DNA of 64,000 bases, taken from NCBI RefSeq assembly GCF_038397785.1, contig NZ_CP151642.1:2480001-2544000 (forward strand), given 5' to 3'. A model generated the notes under the pieces. That model made no database searches. It saw only the letters and a program-made list of their open reading frames with translations, and was not told the DNA's origin. The position numbers and the translations under genes were made by a program. This document shows, piece by piece, positions 51,972 through 64,000 of the stretch. Every line of letters starts with the position of its first letter. Positions within the stretch are counted from its first letter, which is position 1. This DNA is from Salinibacterium sp. TMP30 (lineage in GTDB: Bacteria > Actinomycetota > Actinomycetes > Actinomycetales > Microbacteriaceae).

Positions 51972-52793
51972 ATGATTCCTGACACCCTTACCCAGGGGCA
52001 GTACGACACCGTCTACAACTTCCTTTCGCTCGTCATCGCTTCGCAGCTCTTCACCGCTGTGTTCCTGACAATCGCTTTGCCGCGAATCTTGCCTCGCTAC
52101 CGGCAGGCAATCACGGTAGCGATTGTTGTGTGCGCAATTGCGGCGTACCACTACTTCCGAATCTTCGACTCATTCAAAGAGGCCTTCGTGTCGGACTCTG
52201 TCGGTGGCGCGGGCGTATACACGCAAGCTGTCGGCGCATCGTTCAACGAGGGATACCGCTACGTTGACTGGCTTCTGACAGTGCCCCTTCTGCTGCTGGA
52301 ACTCATCGCCGTACTCGCTCTCGCTCGCAAGGTGCAGACCGGACTGATCATTCGTCTGCTGCCCGCTGCCGCGCTCATGATCATCCTCGGATACCCCGGC
52401 GAGATCAGCGGCGACAACACCGTACGCGGAATCTTCGGTCTGCTGTCCACGATTCCCTTCGCGTACATCCTGTACGTGCTCTTCGTGCAGCTGGGTAAGT
52501 CACTCAATAAGCAGCCAGTCTCGGTGCGCCGCACCCTCAGCCAGTTGCGCTTCCTCCTGCTGCTCAGCTGGGGCGTTTACCCCATCGCCTACATCCTCCC
52601 GATGCTCGACATCAGTGGGGCGGATGCCTGGGTGGGCAAACAGATCGGATACTCGATAGCCGACATACTGGCGAAGGCCGTCTACGCGTTGATCATCTTC
52701 TACGTCGCCCGTATGAAGTCGTTCGACGATGACCCGGATTTCGCCGCGCGAGAGAACTCTCCCGAGGATGCCGCAATGTTCGTCCGCAGGTAG
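51972..52793 (+). CDS. light-driven proton pump rhodopsin (actinorhodopsin/xanthorhodopsin-like)
   Basis: A 273-residue seven-helix type I rhodopsin. YRYVDWLLTVPLLLLE carries the proton-pump triad Asp99, Thr103 and Glu110 (DTE); Leu107, at the known spectral-tuning position, predicts green absorption. His60 in AAYHYFRI matches the His that partners the primary acceptor in proteorhodopsins. Asp231 and the retinal Lys235 are in SIADILAKAVYAL. The overall sequence fits the actinorhodopsin group. GGAGG before the ATG. Retinal synthesis genes (crt, blh) are not in this window, so retinal must come from elsewhere in the genome or from outside. Confidence 0.95.
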   Translation: MIPDTLTQGQYDTVYNFLSLVIASQLFTAVFLTIALPRILPRYRQAITVAIVVCAIAAYHYFRIFDSFKEAFVSDSVGGAGVYTQAVGASFNEGYRYVDWLLTVPLLLLELIAVLALARKVQTGLIIRLLPAAALMIILGYPGEISGDNTVRGIFGLLSTIPFAYILYVLFVQLGKSLNKQPVSVRRTLSQLRFLLLLSWGVYPIAYILPMLDISGADAWVGKQIGYSIADILAKAVYALIIFYVARMKSFDDDPDFAARENSPEDAAMFVRR

Positions 52794-52854: not shown

Positions 52855-52926
52855 CCCTGTGCAGGCCGACCCCGTAAATGGCTTAGTCGGTGTTGTCGGT
52901 GTCGTCGGCCCGTGTCAGCATGGAGC

Positions 52927-54036
52927 ATGTTCCGGATTACTGAGCACCACGTTTCGCCTCTTGCGCTTCCGCAACCCCTCTGCTTGATCGTGCCCCCGTT
53001 CCTTCTGGCGCGGATCGCGACGCTGGAGGATCCCCGCTTCGAACGGGCCGCACACGCCGCACGGCGGTCGCTGACCGATGTCGCCCACGATCACCTCGAC
53101 CATGGCCGCAGTCACAACGTGTTGCCCCACAGGTCGCTGCGCCCCGGTGAGCCGAGCGTGCGCGGGCAAATCAGTCGTTCCATCTACGACGCCCACGGTG
53201 CTGAAGCATTGCCCGGAACGTTGGTGCGCACCGAAGGTGAACCGGAGACCGACGATGCATCCGTCTCCGAGGCCTATGAGGGTCTGGGCAGCACGTTTGC
53301 CCTCTTCTGGGAAGTGTTCGCGCGCGATTCGATCAACGATCGCTCTGCCCCACTTGACGCCACCGTGCACTACGGAAATCGCTACGACAACGCGTTCTGG
53401 GATGGCACACGCATGGTGTTCGGAGACGGAGACGGCGAGATCTTCGGTGGATTTACGCGCTCGCTCAGCGTGATCGGCCACGAACTCACCCACGGCGTGA
53501 CCGAATACACGGCGGGCCTGATCTACCAAGGCCAGAGCGGCGCACTCAACGAACACCTTTCCGATGTGTTCGGATCATTAGTCGAGCAGTATGCTCGCGG
53601 CCAGAACGCTGCAGCTGCATCGTGGCTTGTCGGGGAAGGCATCTTCACCGAACAGGTCGAAGGAAACGCGCTGCGCTCGCTGAGAGCACCCGGAACCGCT
53701 TATGACGACGACGTGCTCGGAAAAGACCCCCAGCCCGACCATCTAGATGGCTACATCGAAACTCTCGACGATAACGGCGGCGTGCACCTGAACTCAGGCA
53801 TTCCCAATCGGGCGTTCTGGAGCGTCGCCAGTACCCTTGGCGGCAATGCGTGGGAACGCGCGGGGCAGATCTGGTACGACACCCTCACCGGCAACTCCCT
53901 TACGCCCCGCAGCAACTTTGCCGAATTCGCGGCAGCAACAGTCGAGACAGCTGTGGCACGATACGGGTTCAGCTCCCCTGAGCACGAAGCTGTCGTCGGC
54001 GGCTGGACTCTGGTCGGCATCACGACCGCCGAATAA
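52927..54036 (+). CDS. protealysin-like M4 metalloprotease
   Basis: A 369-residue thermolysin-family zinc protease. The zinc motif HELTH is at 185-189, with the third ligand Glu209 in GALNEHLSD and a catalytic His in DNGGVHLNSG. There is no signal peptide. The short N-terminal propeptide has VPPFLLARIA, the conserved motif of protealysin-like precursors, so the enzyme matures by removal of about 50 residues and is exported, if at all, without a Sec signal. An emfourin-like inhibitor gene follows 40 bases downstream. A GTG 15 bases upstream is an alternative start. Confidence 0.93.
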   Translation: MFRITEHHVSPLALPQPLCLIVPPFLLARIATLEDPRFERAAHAARRSLTDVAHDHLDHGRSHNVLPHRSLRPGEPSVRGQISRSIYDAHGAEALPGTLVRTEGEPETDDASVSEAYEGLGSTFALFWEVFARDSINDRSAPLDATVHYGNRYDNAFWDGTRMVFGDGDGEIFGGFTRSLSVIGHELTHGVTEYTAGLIYQGQSGALNEHLSDVFGSLVEQYARGQNAAAASWLVGEGIFTEQVEGNALRSLRAPGTAYDDDVLGKDPQPDHLDGYIETLDDNGGVHLNSGIPNRAFWSVASTLGGNAWERAGQIWYDTLTGNSLTPRSNFAEFAAATVETAVARYGFSSPEHEAVVGGWTLVGITTAE

Positions 54037-56480: not shown

Positions 56481-56933
56481 CTAGCCCTCGTACCGTTCCA
56501 CGCGCAGCACACAGCTGAGTCCGTCTTCGGCGACCGGGATTGTGGTGCTCCAGTCGGCGCTTGCTCCAGGCTCGGTTGCTTCGACATCCACTTGAGTGAG
56601 TGCACGAGTGTCGTTGGCACCATTCAGCAGCGAGATGTAGATGCGGTAGGTGACGTTGGCATCGGTGGAGTTGGTGACGCTGCCCGAGACTGTCCACTCA
56701 TCGCCGGCACGCTTGCACTCGTCAACTGTGGAGTCTGCGAGCGCACCTTGCAGATTCTCACCGGTGCCGGGAGCATCCGTGATGTCTGTGATGCCGGGCG
56801 TCTGCTCTGCCGAAGCGGAACTTTCGACCGGATCAGGCTGCCGCTCAGTGCCGTTGTTAGTGCAGCCAGCAAGAGTGAGGGCCAGGATCGCGAAAGGGAC
56901 GGCGGTGGCGGTCAGTCGTGTGCGGAGCTTCAT
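56481..56933 (-). CDS. small lipoprotein coupled to the giant surface protein gene
   Basis: A 150-residue lipoprotein. The signal sequence ends in LTLAGC (lipobox, Cys about 24), then a Ser/Glu/Pro-rich linker, then a domain from about residue 70 with two cysteines and a beta-rich pattern (WTVSGSVTNSTDANVTYRIY, then DWSTTIPVAEDGLSC), resembling FxLYD-type beta-sandwiches. Its ATG overlaps the stop of the giant repeat protein gene (ATGA), so both are probably made together. Function unknown. Confidence 0.8.
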   Translation of the reverse strand: MKLRTRLTATAVPFAILALTLAGCTNNGTERQPDPVESSASAEQTPGITDITDAPGTGENLQGALADSTVDECKRAGDEWTVSGSVTNSTDANVTYRIYISLLNGANDTRALTQVDVEATEPGASADWSTTIPVAEDGLSCVLRVERYEG

Positions 56934-59900
56934 GAATTTTCCTGTCGTTGTCTTCTGCGTGCGAGCAGGATCAGGGCGAGGCCGGCGAGCAGTGTGCCCA
57001 GCCCGGTTGCGAGCGTTCCCCGTGGATCTGATCCAGTGTAAGAGAGTGCCTTGGTAGGTAGCTGCAAACTTGTTTGTGCTGTTGCGAATACAGGATCGCC
57101 AGAGTCGAGCTCTGTGCTCGTGACGGTTGCGGTCTCGTACAGCATCGTTCCGGCATCACGTTCCTGGATGACATAGTTCGCCGTTGCGGTGATCGATTCG
57201 CCAGGTGCGAGCGCACCCGTCGCGCCCGGCCAGGCGCCATAGCGGAGCGCTGACAAGCCACTTCGCAGATCGCTCATGGTGACGTTTGTCAGAGGCAGCG
57301 TGCCCGTGTTCGTCGCGACATAGGTGAAGATAACTACATCGCCGGGGAAACCCTTCTGCCCGGCAGCGAAGGCCGCAGAGAGTCGGAGATCGATGTTGGC
57401 CACATTCGGGATAGCCAACACATTGGTGTCACTGACCGGCGCGATCGCGCCCGATGGTGCTTCGGCGTTTACGGTTGCCTCATTGGTGGTCTCTTCGACA
57501 TCCACATCTGCCTGAGTAATAACGTAGGTTGCCGTTGCCACCACGGACTGCCCCGGCGTCAGCTGCCCCGGCGTACCCGGCCACGTGTAACTGAGTGCCG
57601 ACAGCCCCGGCTTCATATCGCTGACCGACACTGCGGTGAGTGTCACGTTTCCGGTATTGCGAACCTCAATGCGGTAGTTGACGGTTGCGCCCTGCTGGGC
57701 ATAGGTCGCCAGCGAGCTCGTCTTCGCAATAGTCATCGAAGGGTCTTCAGCGATAGCGGTGGAGCCCAACGCAGTGTCGACGACGGCAGCCCCGACTGCA
57801 GGCGTGCCCGAAGCGGATGCCGTCGAACCGATGAAACCGGAGTCGACATCGTTCTGAGTCAGCACGTACGTTGCGGTCGCGGTTGCAGACTGTCCAGGAG
57901 CGAGTACGCCAGCCGCACCCGGCCAGATAATCGTGATCGTGATGGTACTGAGATTGGTTTGGTTATCGGCAATCGTCACGCCACTGAGCGTCACGTCTCC
58001 CTCGTTCGTCACCTCGAACGCAAACTCGACGGTGTCTCCCGCGCGGCTAGGGGCACCGGAGGCCAGCACCTGCGTCTTAGTAATCGCGATATCGGGACTA
58101 CCGAGTGCGGTCGGAGTCACGACCGTGTTCGAGCTCACATCGATCGCATCGCCTCTCGGGTCAAACCCCGTGACGCCCGCCGTATTCGTCGCCGAACCAG
58201 CATCAAACTCTGTCTGGGTTACCTGGTAACTCGCCGTCGCCGCGACTTGCTCGCCCGGCGCAAGAACGCCGATCGCCGCCGGCCATGCTCCGTAACTGAT
58301 CGTCGTGGTTCCCACCTTCGGGTCGGCGATAGTAACCTCGCCGATGGTCGTCTCTCCCGTGTTATTCACGGTGAAGGTGTAGTCGATCCACGAACCGACC
58401 GTTGCCGCGCCACCGCCGCGTACGGTGCCCGCCTTCGTGATCGACAGTGTGGAGTCCGCCGCGATCAATGGCACGACGGTGACTGCCGAGTCATCTGAGA
58501 CGGCGGTTGCGCTGGGGGAACTGCCGGTACCGGTCGCAACATTTCTGACCTCGCCGGCGTCGACATCCGCCTGGCTGACGGTCCGGGTCGCCGTGACTGT
58601 GAGGCTTTCGCCAGGAGCCAGAGTGCCGGGGTTCGCGACGTCTGGCCACGTGTACGTGAAGCCGGTGAGCCCTGCAATCGTGTTGGACAGCACAACACCG
58701 GTGAGAGTGACGTTTCCGTTGTTTGTGAGGGTGAAATTGTAGTCGATGGTGTCACCGAGGAGACCGGTCGCTGCGGTCGCGAGCGCCGCACTCTGCGTCG
58801 TCAGGATCGATGGTGCTGCGGGTTCTGTGGGGTTCTCGACAGTGTTCGATACGCCGGTGACCTCGACACCGTTGGGAGCGGTTCCGACGGCAGTCGCGGT
58901 GTTGATCACCTTGCCGTTGTCAATATCGGCCTGAGTGAGTGTGTAAATGACAGAGCCAACCGCCTGCTGTCCCGGTCCGAGAATTCCGGTTGCCGAGGGG
59001 AACGTGAGGTCGGATGGCACTACTGCGATAAGGGGATCGAGCACCTCAACGAGGCGCAGCGTCACATTGCCGGTGTTCGTCACAATGAAGCTATAGACGA
59101 TCTCAGAACCGACGCCGCCAGTGCCCGACGTGAGCACTCCCGACTTTTGCGCCGTGATGCTGGGATTGGCCGCTTCGGTCATCAGCCGGTCGACGGTAGA
59201 GCTGGCGGTCACCGCGGAGCTGTTCGGGGTCTCGCCACGGGCTGAAGCGGTGTTGTCGACATAGCCCCGATCCACGTCATCCTGCTCGAGAGCGTAGGTC
59301 GCACTCGCTGTTGCCGTCTGTCCCGGAGCAAGCACACCGCTCGCTGCGGGCCACGCGATGGAATCGATAGAGACATTGGGGATGCTGTCGCTGATCGTGA
59401 CCGAGCGCAGAGTCACGTTTCCGATGTTCTGTACTTCGATTGTGTAGTTCACGGTGTCACCGGGACCATTTTCGCCAGCCACGGCTAGCTCACTGGACTT
59501 GCGTACTTCGAGCAAGCCCGCGTCCGCGAGAGTCACCGTTGCCGGTGCGCTCGCGGTAGCAGCTGCACCGACTGTAGGTGTTCCTTCACCCGTGACGATG
59601 CTCTGCACCGCACCCGAATCAATGTCCGCCTGAGTGAGAGCCTGCACACGAACTGCAGTAACCGATTGCCCCGGCGCAAGTTCGCCTACCGTCCCCGGCC
59701 AGGTGTAATCAGCGACCGGTAATGAACCGATAAAGTCGCTCAACGTGACGCCACTGAGTGTGACGTTGCCGCTATTGGTGAATGTGTAGTTCCACGTGAC
59801 AGTGTCGCCAGCGGTAGCCGGGCCCGGATCGGTCACGGCACCAGAGTTGGTGATGTCGACCAGCACCGAGGGCTCTTCTGTTGGCACGACCGCGATATTC

Positions 59901-62900
59901 GACGTCGTCGAGATCGCCGCGCCGCGCACCGGAACCGATGAAGCGTTAGCGGTGTTTTCGACGAAACCGCGGTCGACATCCGACTGACGGATGACGTAAC
60001 TTGCTGTGGCAGTTACCGTCTCGTTCGGTGCGAGAGTTTCGGTCGCGGTCGGCCAGTTGACAACGGGAGTCGTCATCCCTGGCAGCGGATCCGTCACCGA
60101 GATCGATCCGATAGTGACGTTCCCGGTGTTGCGCACCAAGAATTCGAAGCCCACTGTGCCGCCCAGGCCGTCTTCGCCCGACACCGTTACCTGACCCGAC
60201 TTCGCCAAGGTCATACTCGACTGCGGCTGGACGGTTTCGACAATAACTTCGTTAGAGCGAGCGGCAACGTCAACGCCCTGAGGATCAGTGGCACCGACAT
60301 CCGCGATATTGGAAATATAGCCAAGGTCGATATCCGCCTGTGTCAACTGAACGGATGCTTCGCCAACAACAGTTTCGCCCGGGCGAACGGTTCCCGGCTG
60401 AGTCGGATTTGGCCACGTGATGACGGGAATGCTCAGCCCCGGCAGGGGGTCGCGCAGCTCGCCATCATGCAGAGTCACGTTGCCGGTGTTTGCAATTTCC
60501 AGACGGTAGTCGACCCAGTCGCCCACCTTACCGATTCCGCCAGCGCGCAATTCGCCAAGTTTGAGAGCTTCGAGTGAGCCTGCAGCGATTATCGGAACGG
60601 TCGCGACTGAGGGCTCGCTGATCTCGGTACCTGAGGACGGCGTTGCGTCACCGCGGACCGTGTTTATAACAGAGCCCGAATCGATGTCGTTCTGAGTGAG
60701 CACGTAACGTGCGGTCGCGGAGACGATCTCTCCTGGGGCAAGTGTTCCCGCAGCTGCCGTTGGCCATGAATAAGTGAGCGCGGAAACGCCGGCGAGCCCG
60801 TCGACCAACTCGACGTCGGTCAGCGTCTGATTTCCGCTGTTGCTCAGCGTGAAATTGAAGTTGATGGTGTCGCCAGCGAAGCCTGTGGCGCCCGGCTCGA
60901 TCGCACCCGATTTGGCGACAACTATTGATGGTTCTGCCGTATCAGTCAGGGTGGACTCCGTCGCCGTATTGCTGACGACAGCGGCATCCGCGGGAGAGGT
61001 GCCGTTCGCTGTCGCGGCATTATCTACTCGGCCAAGGTCTACGTCAGCCTGAGTGATGGCGTAGGTAGCGGTTGCCGTGGCCGTCTCACCCGCCGCCAAC
61101 ACACCGTTAGCGCCCGGCCAGTCGACAACGAGTGCACTCAGCCCAACCAGCGGATCGGCAAAGCTAATCTGGTCGATCGTGACGTTGCCATCGTTGAGCA
61201 ACTCGAAACTGTAGGTGACGATGTCGCCAACGCTAGCGCTCGCGCCCGTAGTCGATGATTTAGTCAACAGGAGAGCTGGATTCGCCGATGCCACCGCCGT
61301 TTCTGTCACTGCGGTGCTCACCGAGATGGTGTCGCTCAGCGGTGGCTTTCCGCTGGCGGTTGCGATGTTCGACACCGATCCTCGGTCGACGTCCGTCTGA
61401 GTAATTGTGTAGTCCGCCGTCGCCGTCACTGTCTGACCAGGTTGCAAGGTTCCGGGCGTTCCCGGCCAGCTGAAGGCGGGCGCGCTCACCCCCGCAAACG
61501 CGTCAACCAAATCGATGAGCGTGAGCGTGACGTTTCCAGTGTTGGTGATACCAAAGCTGTAGTCGATCGTGTCACCGGTGTTACCCACCCCGTTGAGGGC
61601 TCCAGACTTCGTCACTGCCATCGCCGGTTGCTGAGCAAGTACGACTGCGGCGGATGCCGTGTCGCTCACGTCGCCACCGCGCGGTGGCGTGCCCGACCCG
61701 GTCGCTTCGCTCGCTACCGAACCCGAGTCGATCCGAGGCTGAGTCAGAACTGACGTTGCTGTGGCAGTGACCGACTGGCCCGGCTCGAGAATACCGGGCG
61801 CACCGGGCCACCCGTAGGTGATTCCCGAGATCGCGGGAAGGGCATCCACTATCTCAACTGCGGTGAGAGTCACATTGCTCGTGTTGGCCAATTCGTACGA
61901 CCAGTTCACAATGTCGCCCTCGTCAGCACGTGCCGGGTCGGCGAGTACACCGCTCTTAGTCAGCTCGACCGTCGCACGAATCGACTCCGTCGGCACCGTA
62001 TTGGGCTCAGAATCATCAGTAACCGCGGTGTCGTCGGGGTCGGAACCTTCCGCACTGGCGATATTGATGATCGAACCGGCATCCACGTCGGCCTGAGTGA
62101 CGACGTAGGTGGCGCTCGCCGTCGCAACTTCGCCGGGTGCGAGCACATTCGGGCTCGCGGGCGTCGGCCACACGATGGCCAGCCCTGACAGGTCAGGAAG
62201 CGGGTCGCTGAGCGTCACCGTATCTAGCGTGACGTTGCCCGAGTTGAGAATCTGGAACTCATAATCAATCGTGTCGCCAACCTCTGCAGATGCGCGAGGA
62301 GTGCCCACCTTGGTAACCGTGATACTCGGTGCCGCCAAAACAGTCGGGACGATGACTTCGTTCGAGGTCTCAACCACCAACACCCGGTCCGGAGTTTCTG
62401 CAGACATATCAGCGATATTCGAGATGAAGCCGCGATCAACATCTTCTTGAGTCAGCTGATACGTCGCAACGCCTACGACCGCTTCACCTACGGGCACCTC
62501 ACCGGGCTTTGCCGGGTCTGGCCACGTGATGACGGGTACGGAGAGACCAGGCAGAGGGTCGAGCAAGCGGCCGTCATAAAGGGTGACGTTTCCGTTGTTT
62601 GTCACAGTCAACGTGTATTGGATGGTGTCGCCGACTTCGCCAACACCACCATCAAGGTTGATGCCTGACTTCACCGGGGAGAGCACCGGAGCGGCGGCGA
62701 CGATTACCGTCTCGCTCGCGGTGTCGCGAACGGTGCCCCCCGCGGGCATGTTGGCATCCGCAGTGACGGTGTTGTCGACGCCACCAGCGTCAACGTCCGC
62801 TTGGGTGAGCACGTACGAGGCAACCGCGGTGGCGCTTTGGCCAGGCGCAAGTTCGCCATCTGTCGCCGTGGGCCAGGTGTAGGTGAGTGCGCTTAAGTTA

Positions 62901-64000
62901 AGCAGCGGATCTGTGAGAGTGACATCGCTGAGCGTTACGTTTCCGCTATTGCGCACGGTGAAGGAGTAGTTGACCGTGTCGCCTTCGAATCCAGCAGCTC
63001 CCGGCGCAAGCTCGCCGTTCTTTGTCACAGTGACGGAACCACTCGCAGCTTCTGTTGCAACATCGATCGGACCGACCGAAGCGCTCACCGCGCCCGTTGG
63101 TGACGTCGCCACAACGTCCGCGCTGTTGCGCACATACCCAAGGTCAACATCATCCTGTGTTAGCTCATAGGTAGCGGTCGCCGTCGCAACCCCGTTGGGA
63201 GCAAGCTCCCCGGAGGCGCCAGGCCACGAGTAAGCCAGAGTGGAAAGTCCAACGAGCGGGTCGGCGATCGTCACACCGGTAACGGTCGTGTTGCCCGCGT
63301 TGCGCACGGTGAAGACGTAGCTCACGAGATCACCCAAGCGGGCGCCATCCGGAGTAGTGCCTGCTTTGTCGATCGTGATCGATGATTCGCGTGTTTCGGT
63401 GGGGGTCACCGCTGCAGCAGAGTACTCAAAGTATTCGGTTCCCGCGGGCGTCACACCAATTGCCTCAGCAGTGTTGCTGACTTCACCGGCGTCCACATCG
63501 GCTTGCGTGACCGTGTAGGTAGCTGTGGCACTCGCACTTTCGCCAGGGGCAAGCACCCGATCGACACCGGGCCACACGATCGCTGGAGCGCTTACGCCCG
63601 GGAGCGAATCGAGCAAGACCACACCGGTGAACGTGACGTTGCCGGAGTTAGTGATGCTGAACGTGTAGTCGATCACATCGCCGGCCTCGCCCGGCTGGCC
63701 ACCCAGCTTGCCAGTCTTCACCACGGTCAGATCCGGGGCCGGGGTTAGTGCAAGGGTCGCCGAAGCTGGCTCGAGTACCGCCGAACCCGTGGGCGGAAGC
63801 GCCGAAGCATTGACGGTGTTGACGAGCGATCCAGCGTCAATGTCACTCTGAGCGAGGGCGTACGTCGCAGTCGCTGTCACCACATCGGTCGGATTGAGGA
63901 GACCGGGCGTGCCACTCGGCCAGGTGCCGAAGGTGACCGCGGTGAGCCCCGGTAGTTGATCAATGAGGTCCACGGATGTCAGTGAGACGTTGCCATCATT
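56930..64000 (-). CDS. giant DUF11-repeat, sortase-anchored surface protein, 5' end outside window
   Basis: At least 2,357 residues; the frame is open to the right edge, so the signal peptide and true start are not seen. It is a tandem array of 20 visible beta-sandwich domains (the first cut), each 114-120 residues, of the DUF11/DUF7507 conserved-repeat type. Each carries GDxxxYxFxxxNxGNVTLxxVxxxDPLxGL, a WPG loop, LAPGxxxTATATYxLTQADVDxGxVxNxA, and a closing xxTKSG. I see no cysteine in the visible part. The C-terminus has a sorting signal: LSYTG, a hydrophobic helix and a basic tail (ARRRQRQ). Very likely a long stalk or adhesin on the cell wall. Confidence 0.92.
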   Translation of the reverse strand, partial: NDGNVSLTSVDLIDQLPGLTAVTFGTWPSGTPGLLNPTDVVTATATYALAQSDIDAGSLVNTVNASALPPTGSAVLEPASATLALTPAPDLTVVKTGKLGGQPGEAGDVIDYTFSITNSGNVTFTGVVLLDSLPGVSAPAIVWPGVDRVLAPGESASATATYTVTQADVDAGEVSNTAEAIGVTPAGTEYFEYSAAAVTPTETRESSITIDKAGTTPDGARLGDLVSYVFTVRNAGNTTVTGVTIADPLVGLSTLAYSWPGASGELAPNGVATATATYELTQDDVDLGYVRNSADVVATSPTGAVSASVGPIDVATEAASGSVTVTKNGELAPGAAGFEGDTVNYSFTVRNSGNVTLSDVTLTDPLLNLSALTYTWPTATDGELAPGQSATAVASYVLTQADVDAGGVDNTVTADANMPAGGTVRDTASETVIVAAAPVLSPVKSGINLDGGVGEVGDTIQYTLTVTNNGNVTLYDGRLLDPLPGLSVPVITWPDPAKPGEVPVGEAVVGVATYQLTQEDVDRGFISNIADMSAETPDRVLVVETSNEVIVPTVLAAPSITVTKVGTPRASAEVGDTIDYEFQILNSGNVTLDTVTLSDPLPDLSGLAIVWPTPASPNVLAPGEVATASATYVVTQADVDAGSIINIASAEGSDPDDTAVTDDSEPNTVPTESIRATVELTKSGVLADPARADEGDIVNWSYELANTSNVTLTAVEIVDALPAISGITYGWPGAPGILEPGQSVTATATSVLTQPRIDSGSVASEATGSGTPPRGGDVSDTASAAVVLAQQPAMAVTKSGALNGVGNTGDTIDYSFGITNTGNVTLTLIDLVDAFAGVSAPAFSWPGTPGTLQPGQTVTATADYTITQTDVDRGSVSNIATASGKPPLSDTISVSTAVTETAVASANPALLLTKSSTTGASASVGDIVTYSFELLNDGNVTIDQISFADPLVGLSALVVDWPGANGVLAAGETATATATYAITQADVDLGRVDNAATANGTSPADAAVVSNTATESTLTDTAEPSIVVAKSGAIEPGATGFAGDTINFNFTLSNSGNQTLTDVELVDGLAGVSALTYSWPTAAAGTLAPGEIVSATARYVLTQNDIDSGSVINTVRGDATPSSGTEISEPSVATVPIIAAGSLEALKLGELRAGGIGKVGDWVDYRLEIANTGNVTLHDGELRDPLPGLSIPVITWPNPTQPGTVRPGETVVGEASVQLTQADIDLGYISNIADVGATDPQGVDVAARSNEVIVETVQPQSSMTLAKSGQVTVSGEDGLGGTVGFEFLVRNTGNVTIGSISVTDPLPGMTTPVVNWPTATETLAPNETVTATASYVIRQSDVDRGFVENTANASSVPVRGAAISTTSNIAVVPTEEPSVLVDITNSGAVTDPGPATAGDTVTWNYTFTNSGNVTLSGVTLSDFIGSLPVADYTWPGTVGELAPGQSVTAVRVQALTQADIDSGAVQSIVTGEGTPTVGAAATASAPATVTLADAGLLEVRKSSELAVAGENGPGDTVNYTIEVQNIGNVTLRSVTISDSIPNVSIDSIAWPAASGVLAPGQTATASATYALEQDDVDRGYVDNTASARGETPNSSAVTASSTVDRLMTEAANPSITAQKSGVLTSGTGGVGSEIVYSFIVTNTGNVTLRLVEVLDPLIAVVPSDLTFPSATGILGPGQQAVGSVIYTLTQADIDNGKVINTATAVGTAPNGVEVTGVSNTVENPTEPAAPSILTTQSAALATAATGLLGDTIDYNFTLTNNGNVTLTGVVLSNTIAGLTGFTYTWPDVANPGTLAPGESLTVTATRTVSQADVDAGEVRNVATGTGSSPSATAVSDDSAVTVVPLIAADSTLSITKAGTVRGGGAATVGSWIDYTFTVNNTGETTIGEVTIADPKVGTTTISYGAWPAAIGVLAPGEQVAATASYQVTQTEFDAGSATNTAGVTGFDPRGDAIDVSSNTVVTPTALGSPDIAITKTQVLASGAPSRAGDTVEFAFEVTNEGDVTLSGVTIADNQTNLSTITITIIWPGAAGVLAPGQSATATATYVLTQNDVDSGFIGSTASASGTPAVGAAVVDTALGSTAIAEDPSMTIAKTSSLATYAQQGATVNYRIEVRNTGNVTLTAVSVSDMKPGLSALSYTWPGTPGQLTPGQSVVATATYVITQADVDVEETTNEATVNAEAPSGAIAPVSDTNVLAIPNVANIDLRLSAAFAAGQKGFPGDVVIFTYVATNTGTLPLTNVTMSDLRSGLSALRYGAWPGATGALAPGESITATANYVIQERDAGTMLYETATVTSTELDSGDPVFATAQTSLQLPTKALSYTGSDPRGTLATGLGTLLAGLALILLARRRQRQENS
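56933..63358 (-). repeat. six-domain higher-order repeat in the giant surface protein
   Basis: Three blocks of six domains each: 61253-63358 (domains 3-8), 59138-61252 (9-14) and 56933-59137 (15-20). Domains six apart resemble each other more than neighbours do. For example, domains 5 and 11 both read PLPGLSxPVITWP with xxYISNIAD or FISNIAD, and domains 7 and 13 share Trp in NWSY/TWNY. Domain lengths 117, 120, 118, 116 repeat exactly in domains 4-7 and 10-13. Confidence 0.7.
57032..57046 (-). other. sortase sorting motif LSYTG
   Basis: LSYTG stands in place of the standard LPXTG, followed by a hydrophobic stretch (LGTLLAGLALILL) and Arg-rich tail. Pro at position two is replaced by Ser. No sortase gene lies in the window. 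Confidence 0.7.

What the first reader, a model, noticed from the sequence alone, without database searches (positions are those of the whole stretch)
56930..64000. Higher-order six-domain periodicity in a giant surface protein
Twenty tandem domains are visible, and domains n and n+6 share specific residues and lengths: 4/10/16, 5/11/17, 7/13, 2/8, 3/9. The length series 117-120-118-116 repeats exactly in domains 4-7 and 10-13. This suggests growth by duplication of a unit of about 2.1 kb rather than single domains, followed by divergence. It may reflect a functional superstructure such as a regular kink or binding site every sixth domain.
Basis: seen in the sequence. Interest (0 to 1): 0.72.

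Follow-up and report, generated by a model that had tools for sequence, protein, structure and literature searches.

The report
Giant stalk with three-domain metre
A giant bacterial surface protein is built from 47 similar domains arranged in repeating groups of three and six, an old pattern that in several related bacteria also decides which domains carry a predicted internal chemical lock, so it may set the mechanics of a long stalk.

Summary
The window holds the last 39% of a ~6,073-residue sortase-anchored protein with 47 DUF7507 (CLIPPER_2) domains, D01-D47; the window shows D28-D47. Within the window, spacing six is the only enriched spacing (z 3.2-3.7). Over the whole protein the base period is three (spacings 3, 6, 9, 12), with six-domain blocks on top. 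The signal is ancient: fourfold sites are saturated, and loci from three other genera keep exactly 47 domains, in register. Two shorter relatives fit a 12-domain (two-block) step.

Beyond the finding: linker length beats 34-36-36 in all six three-period arrays tested. The predicted isopeptide-lock triad (Lys/Asp/Asn) is lost with the same beat: every third domain over D25-D43 in three genera, every sixth in Microbacterium hydrocarbonoxydans, every second in Curtobacterium and some Frigoribacterium arrays. The acceptor Asn-to-Ser change goes with a core Phe-to-Tyr change. In the window's own genome only 5 of 47 domains are unlocked, and their spacing is not significant.

Best reading: a duplicated, then frozen, stalk; in relatives its anchor-side part mixes locked and unlocked domains at set intervals, perhaps as a shock absorber. 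Mechanics are inferred, not shown.

The parts
56930..64000 (-). C-terminal ~39% of a ~6,073-aa giant surface protein; the gene continues outside the window to about window-equivalent 75151
63746..64000 (-). D28 (part; its other end lies outside the window at 64099)
60941..63049 (-). six-domain block D31-D36
58823..60940 (-). six-domain block D37-D42, counterpart of D31-D36
61637..63049 (-). D31-D34, length series 117-120-118-116
59528..60940 (-). D37-D40, same length series
62339..62698 (-). D32, the special class shared with D26 and D38; more conserved across genera than its neighbours
60230..60589 (-). D38, same special class
61637..61984 (-). D34, predicted unlocked: acceptor Asn is Ser, core Phe is Tyr
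59528..59875 (-). D40, predicted unlocked: Lys is Asn, acceptor Asn is Ser, core Phe is Tyr
58463..58822 (-). D43, predicted unlocked (triad QNN)
57752..58105 (-). D45, predicted unlocked (triad KDS)
57092..57409 (-). D47, last domain, Lys and Asn of the triad absent
57032..57046 (-). sorting motif LSYTG (position counted by hand)
   Evidence: sequence; LPXTG_anchor model over its cut-off
56933..57064 (-). C-terminal sorting signal: motif, hydrophobic stretch, basic tail

Best explanation
The gene encodes a sortase-anchored giant stalk of 47 CLIPPER_2 domains. SHOWN BY COMPARISON: the array follows a three-domain plan (one domain type with 34 residues from its acceptor position to the next domain's lysine, then two with 36) with six-domain blocks on top; the plan and the count of 47 are shared in register by loci of other genera and are not recent; in relatives, domains lacking the predicted isopeptide triad sit at every 2nd, 3rd or 6th place, mostly in the later (anchor-side) part of the array. 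INFERRED: the array grew by duplication of three-domain and then six-domain units and then froze. The short linker sets a regular change of orientation between neighbours. Domains with the triad are covalently locked and resist unfolding; domains without it can open and refold. So in the relatives with regular unlocking the anchor-side part works as an evenly spaced shock absorber below a stiffer, locked outer part that carries an N-terminal head of unknown fold; the window's own protein keeps the plan with few unlocked domains.
For: Spacing 3/6/9/12 enrichment; spacings 3 and 6 enriched in nine of nine 46/47-domain proteins. 47 domains over Pfam's cut-off in the frame; exactly 47 in one frame in 8 of the 9 giant same-genus loci fetched, the ninth being split over two frames, and in 5 loci of three other genera, in register. 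Linker beat: no shuffle of 20,000 reached it in the window's protein, reproduced in 5 of 5 three-period relatives tested, weakest in L055. Lock map: 8 of 9 class-1 domains in D19-D43 unlocked against 1 of 16 others in g22 (p 7e-5), 8/9 against 4/16 in g36, 8/9 against 5/16 in both g49 loci; window genome 3/9 against 0/16 (p 0.037). Runs of six at step 3, p 8e-5 to 3.7e-4; 12 of 12 and 13 of 13 Ser/Thr acceptors on even places in L093 and L083. Ser/Thr acceptor goes with core Tyr: 34 of 42 against 7 of 278. With the triad columns masked, 53 of 60 Ser/Thr-acceptor domains have such a domain as nearest neighbour, against 7 of 290 others (tree). Sorting signal and two sortases. DUF7507 is a predicted isopeptide family; the related DUF11 was crystallised with the bond, which gives thermal and protease stability (PMC12617251, passages seen).
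Against: No bond was observed in any of these domains; the triad assignment rests on the paper plus sequence position, and no solved chain matched by sequence. In the window's own genome only D34, D40, D43, D45, D47 are unlocked and their spacing is not significant (run p 0.64 for Ser acceptors, 0.14 for all five); g38 is not significant either, nor are two other Salinibacterium proteins (p 0.12 each). Counting all triad losses over whole arrays, a best-phase test is significant in only 5 of 15 arrays. The region D19-D43, the Ser/Thr definition and the run test were chosen after seeing the maps. L074 has the three-beat with 33 of 35 domains locked (the other two lie at its contig end), and Agrococcus L115 has period two with 34 of 34 locked, so the repeat exists without unlocking. 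Ser-acceptor domains are related to each other, so lineages are not independent. The period-two arrays other than L058 are cut by the locus edge on the anchor side and L058 on the head side, so their ends were not seen. 14 of 27 genomes of the genus lack a match, so the protein is dispensable.
Confidence: 0.53

Rival explanations
1. Pure history: triplet and hexad duplications left a periodic similarity, and nothing about the spacing is selected; unlocked domains are decayed copies inherited in phase.
For: The period differs between related giant proteins (3/6; 2; 2 with a 14-domain repeat in L058), which no universal geometric rule would give. Spacing-six pairs exceed the between-genus value by 2.3 points within a protein, against about 0.5-1.8 at other spacings, and M. 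hydrocarbonoxydans D28 and D40 are nearly identical (tree distance 0.04), so homogenisation in register probably goes on. Unlocked domains form related groups.
Against: Decay would not keep the linker beat in several genera at ~50% identity, nor replace Asn by Ser together with Phe by Tyr, nor keep unlocked domains about as conserved as locked ones (cross-genus identity D34 45%, D40 50%, D43 51%, within the 39-55% range of D20-D47).
Confidence: 0.32
2. A ligand-binding ruler: the D26/D32/D38 class carries a surface site repeated every six domains, as proposed for titin's thick-filament super-repeats.
For: D26, D32 and D38 are the closest paralogues in the five-genus average and are local conservation peaks.
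Against: Only three copies; D35 is as strong a peak outside the phase; the p value of 0.015 was obtained after seeing the pattern; no partner known.
Confidence: 0.1
3. Unlocked domains carry another internal cross-link (for instance through the Asp, Ser or Tyr that replace the triad and its neighbour), so the array alternates two bond chemistries.
For: The replacements are consistent (DDS/DES/KDS, mostly with Tyr), as if a new site had been built.
Against: I know of no chemistry for such a pair; Lys is kept in some and replaced in others.
Confidence: 0.05

Closest known systems
DUF7507 / CLIPPER_2 (PF24346) tandem stalks of fibrillar adhesins (PMC12617251, passages seen)
   Same: Same domain family by Pfam score; same predicted Lys/Asp/Asn triad; tandem array with a C-terminal sorting signal
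   Different: The passages seen say that some DUF11 domains lack the bond and that DUF11 and DUF7507 can alternate; they describe no fixed count, no linker beat and no periodic placing of unlocked domains
Titin A-band super-repeats (PMC10665226, passages seen)
   Same: Tandem domains more alike at equal places of a super-repeat than to others; recursive duplication model; conservation focused at certain super-repeat places
   Different: Eukaryotic muscle protein of Ig and FnIII domains along the thick filament; no isopeptide locks (the last point is recalled)
Isopeptide-locked Gram-positive pilins and the CnaA 'shock absorber' hypothesis (as described in PMC12617251; the original papers were not read)
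   Same: Covalent locks proposed to set how far a stalk extends under load
   Different: Here locked and unlocked domains are predicted to follow a regular pattern inside one long polypeptide

Membership tests
DUF7507 / CLIPPER_2 | Domain scores over Pfam's gathering cut-off | tested here: met
   47 matches over the cut-off in this frame; PF24346 with 20 stretches in the window part
DUF7507 / CLIPPER_2 | Lys/Asp/Asn triad at the positions given for the family | tested here: met
   All three present in 42 of 47 domains; the exceptions are D34, D40, D43, D45, D47. The positions were matched by eye to the paper's example, not by a structural alignment
DUF7507 / CLIPPER_2 | Isopeptide bond actually formed | not testable with these tools
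   Needs intact mass or a crystal structure
DUF7507 / CLIPPER_2 | Ig-like beta-sandwich of CnaA type | tested here: inconclusive
   Confident all-beta models (mean pLDDT 92.7 for D39-D41, 88.6 for D41); Foldseek hits are generic Ig-like, adaptin-ear and integrin folds, with the BcpA pilin at rank 19
Sortase-anchored fibrillar adhesin | C-terminal sorting signal and a sortase in the genome | tested here: met
   LPXTG_anchor 16.9 bits against cut-off 15.9 (E 0.0077), motif LSYTG; two sortase genes over the cut-off
Sortase-anchored fibrillar adhesin | Signal peptide | not tested
   A hydrophobic stretch ending in AAPAEAA is seen near the chosen start; no predictor was run
Sortase-anchored fibrillar adhesin | Adhesive N-terminal head | tested here: inconclusive
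   Residues 1-511 match nothing in Pfam at E 1 except a DUF7507-like end below its cut-off
Titin-like super-repeat protein | Domains more alike at equal super-repeat places than to others | tested here: met
Titin-like super-repeat protein | Period matched to a partner filament | not testable with these tools
   no partner known

The most novel reading that the evidence does not exclude
Giant CLIPPER_2 stalks of Microbacteriaceae encode their mechanics as a metre: covalently locked and unlocked domains at fixed intervals (1 in 2, 1 in 3, 1 in 6), the unlocked type having a rebuilt core (Asn to Ser with Phe to Tyr) and a shorter linker, placed mainly in the anchor-side part under an almost fully locked outer part. 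Different lineages tune the dose of extensible domains by duplicating units of different size.
Probability: 0.4. Interest if true: 0.85.

Novelty: new variant of a known kind. Interest (0 to 1): 0.67.

Why it matters
Repeat number in bacterial surface proteins often varies between strains (general knowledge, not tested here); in this protein 47 diverged domains are held constant across genera, which makes length and rhythm testable as selected traits. If unlocked domains really are spaced at set intervals, these proteins are natural co-polymers of inextensible and extensible units at three different doses: a direct test of the shock-absorber idea and a template for protein materials.

Tried and rejected
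A DNA-level tandem repeat or a recent duplication in the window genome: rejected. A universal rule fixing the period: rejected, because related giants have period 2 (L058, L082-L084, L093, L096, L098, L115, L121) or no clear higher period (L101, L102, L112, L120; L116 weak). Faster or slower evolution of one whole phase class: not found (Kruskal p 0.50 for mod 3, 0.81 for mod 6). Mapping the triad onto a solved chain by sequence: no hit at E 0.01. The second structural library was not available. Foldseek on the three-domain model gave generic multi-domain hits. A search of 396 genomes drawn from the order with D39-D41 matched 11 at E 1e-50, the longest frame outside the window's genome being 3,474 aa and outside the family 2,965 aa, so giants of this size look rare. 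A whole-array best-phase test of all triad losses was significant for g22 (p 0.01), L093, L082, L083 (each below 0.001) and L086 (0.027), and for none of the other 10 of 15 arrays, the window genome among them. I then defined the state by a Ser/Thr acceptor and used a run test; these definitions were chosen after seeing the maps, so their p values are optimistic. By the Ser/Thr best-phase test the three-period arrays g22, g36, g49a, g49b, L085 and L092 give p 0.0008-0.033, L071 and L075 0.032 and 0.023 at period 6, while g1a-c, g38, L057, L059, L061, L086 and L095 are not significant. Some arrays are the same gene fetched twice, judged by equal contig lengths (L078 and L053, L085 and L055, L092 and L054, L086 and L057, L115 and L060, L063-L068 and the genus loci). 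Rows dropped: domains cut at the locus edge were not counted as losses and were left out of the tree; arrays under 8 domains were left out of the lock map and arrays under 20 out of the tests; rows with a gap at a scored column were left out.

Literature searches for the pattern; in their listings I saw no paper on periodic isopeptide loss or on this protein (one search listed 8 of 40). The library lacks most subscription journals and holds no preprints. I saw passages of PMC12617251 and PMC10665226 only; other papers were seen as listings.
Full report
OBSERVATION. The open frame at 56930-64000 on the minus strand is the last 39% of a longer gene. With the adjoining stretch of the same genome it reads without a stop for 6,118 codons; taking a GTG preceded by GGGGGAGTGG as the start gives 6,073 aa (the start is my choice). 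A profile made from the protein itself finds 48 units, the first very weak; Pfam's DUF7507 model finds 47 over its cut-off in this frame plus one below it. I number the 47 as D01-D47. The lengths 117-120-118-116 are exact in D31-D34 and D37-D40.

PERIODICITY. Order shuffles of the 20 window domains give spacing 6 as the only enriched spacing (z 3.2, p 0.002; z 3.7, p 0.0007 after row and column centring). For all 47 domains spacings 3, 6, 9 and 12 are enriched (z 5.9, 6.6, 3.9, 4.3) and no other from 1 to 14 is at p 0.05. In nine of nine 46- or 47-domain proteins tested from five genera, spacing 3 has z 2.8 to 7.1, spacing 6 z 6.8 to 10.8, spacing 12 z 2.7 to 5.9; spacing 9 ranges from 0.9 to 4.7. 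Averaged over five genera the strongest paralogues are D26/D32/D38, six apart, then D04/D10. D41-D47 as a set show no phase. Among 29 arrays of 20 or more domains from the named scan, by my reading of the z values 16 peak at multiples of three, 8 at even spacings, and 5 show neither clearly.

AGE. Fourfold-degenerate sites between domains agree in 32.5%, with no excess at 3 or 6, and no tandem DNA repeat of period up to 500 is called in the gene. In the genus 13 of 27 genomes, the window's own included, have a match at E 0.001. Of the 12 loci fetched, 8 have all 47 domains in one frame with nearly the same length series (in L011 that frame opens only 76 residues before D01, so the head is not in it), one (L017) has the array split over two frames (42 domains, and 5 plus the weak first unit), and three (L018-L020) are other proteins with 5 to 8 domains. 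In the family 16 of 299 genomes drawn, four of them of the window's genus with the window's own included, match at E 1e-60. Of 12 further loci five from three genera have 47 (L051, L052, L054-L056), L053 has 46 plus the weak first unit, L057 has 40, is cut by its contig and fits a 47 array at constant offset 7, L058 has 40, is cut and has another period, L059 leaves the frame after 33, L060 has 33 plus one, L061 has 35, L062 has 12. Register is kept: within the genus 46 or 47 of 47 domains find their own number as best match; in L051, L052 and L054-L056 14 to 38 of 47 do after centring (9 to 33 on raw score), and among offsets -7 to 7 offset 0 has the best mean score (offset 1 for L053, whose count starts one earlier), with side peaks at 3 and 6. 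L061 and, less clearly, L059 fit best with a register step of 12.

LINKER BEAT. From the acceptor position of one domain to the triad position of the next there are 34 residues after a class-1 (1 mod 3) domain and 36 after the other two (means 34.25 and 35.90; no shuffle of 20,000 reached this). The beat is also in L051, L052, L055, L071 and L074 (p 0.0002 each, the least value possible; lists); L053 was not tested. Agreement with exactly 34/36/36 is 37 of 46 linkers in the window's protein and 35/46, 31/46, 23/46, 34/46 and 29/34 in those relatives. Period-two arrays alternate 34/36 (L058) or 34/35 (L093), weakly in L082; L112, L060 and L115 are flat at 34.

LOCK MAP. DUF7507 is a predicted intramolecular-isopeptide family with Lys, Asp and Asn; DUF11, its relative, was crystallised with the bond (PMC12617251, passages). 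The conserved K, D and N of the alignment (44, 46 and 43 of 47) are, by my reading, the only candidates at fitting distances. In the tests K with D or E and N or D counts as locked. In the window's genome 42 of 47 domains are locked; D34, D40, D43, D45 and D47 are not. In g22 (L051), g36 (L053) and g49 (L054, L055) D19, D25, D28, D31, D34, D37, D40 and D43 are unlocked: 8 of 9 class-1 places in D19-D43, against 1, 4, 5 and 5 of 16 others. In the three Salinibacterium proteins of that call it is 3/9 against 0/16 (window, p 0.037), 3/9 against 1/16 and 2/9 against 0/16 (p 0.12 each), in g38 4/9 against 2/16 (p 0.097). M. hydrocarbonoxydans (L071) is unlocked at D22, D28, D34, D40, D43, D45, D47, and PS02344 (L075) at the same places if its last domain is D47. 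Curtobacterium (L093, L096, L098), Frigoribacterium (L082, L084) and PS02333 (L083) have Ser or Thr acceptors on even places only from the 12th domain on, 11 to 13 each; L058 has 15 of 18 on even places. Frigoribacterium sp. ACAM 257 (L053, also fetched as L078) has the three-period type instead. L101, L102, L112, L115 and L121 are fully locked. Only 3 of 144 cells of D01-D18 in eight proteins are unlocked; the first 11 domains of the six period-two arrays are locked except the fourth in four of them. Those six arrays are cut by the locus edge on the anchor side and L058 on the head side. Run tests (longest run with one step): g22 1.3e-4, g36 3.7e-4, g49 8e-5, L071 0.018, L075 0.026, L058 0.026, L093 and L083 0 of 20,000; window genome 0.64, g38 0.97; with all losses counted g22 6.7e-4, L071 0.041, window 0.14.

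THE UNLOCKED TYPE. In the three-period arrays (five genera, L071 and L075) a Ser or Thr acceptor goes with Tyr at a core position that is mostly Phe otherwise (Ile, Val or Leu in the rest): 34 of 42 against 7 of 278; in L093 9 of 12 against 3 of 23, L082 6 of 12 against 0 of 23, L083 9 of 13 against 2 of 23. In a tree of 350 domains from eight arrays with the triad columns masked, 53 of 60 Ser/Thr-acceptor domains have such a domain as nearest neighbour, and 54 of 60 when only other arrays and other domain numbers are allowed, against 7 of 290 other domains; the seven that do not fit are D47 and D22 of L071, g38 D31 and D23, the window's own D34, D28 of L093 and g36 D17.

SPECIAL SIXTH DOMAIN. 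Across genera D26, D32 and D38 (54, 54, 51% identity) stand above their neighbours (39-49%); of all triples six apart their summed excess is the largest, p 0.015. D35 is as high and out of phase.

WHAT IT IS. A C-terminal sorting signal with LSYTG (LPXTG_anchor model just over its cut-off), two sortases in the genome and an N-terminal part of about 500 residues with no named domain make it a fibrillar-adhesin-like stalk. From general knowledge of Ig-like domains 47 in line would be near 200 nm long; this is an estimate.

JUDGEMENT. Duplication in threes and sixes followed by long freezing is well supported. That the beat is kept by selection is likely but not proven; that it sets mechanics is inference from the chemistry of the family. 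The repeat also exists without unlocking (L074, L115), so the beat came first or serves another end, and the spacing of unlocked domains is a second layer, present in some lineages and only faint in the window's own.

Noticed in passing
window 51972-52793 (+): Bacteriorhodopsin-like gene (PF01036, E 5e-38) a few kb from the giant gene.
   Followed up: no
window 52912-54036 (+): Thermolysin-type M4 metallopeptidase.
   Followed up: no
G000:C1:1529097-1531511 (outside the window): A second DUF7507 protein in the same genome, frame of 1,364 aa with four matches, three over the cut-off.
   Followed up: no
L058: A giant array with period two and a very strong 14-domain repeat (z 13.1 at spacing 14), in the same genome as L059.
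   Followed up: partly
L071 D28 and D40: In M. hydrocarbonoxydans these two domains, 12 apart, are nearly identical (tree distance 0.04): probably recent in-register homogenisation.
   Followed up: no
L070, L072, L073, L077, L081: Five Microbacterium contigs of 3.6-4.5 kb hold only a piece of such an array, as if short-read assemblies break inside the gene.
   Followed up: no
L017 and L059: The array lies in two frames (L017) or leaves its frame before the end (L059): interrupted gene or sequencing error.
   Followed up: no
genus of the window: Patchy presence: 14 of 27 genomes of the genus have no match at E 0.001.
   Followed up: no
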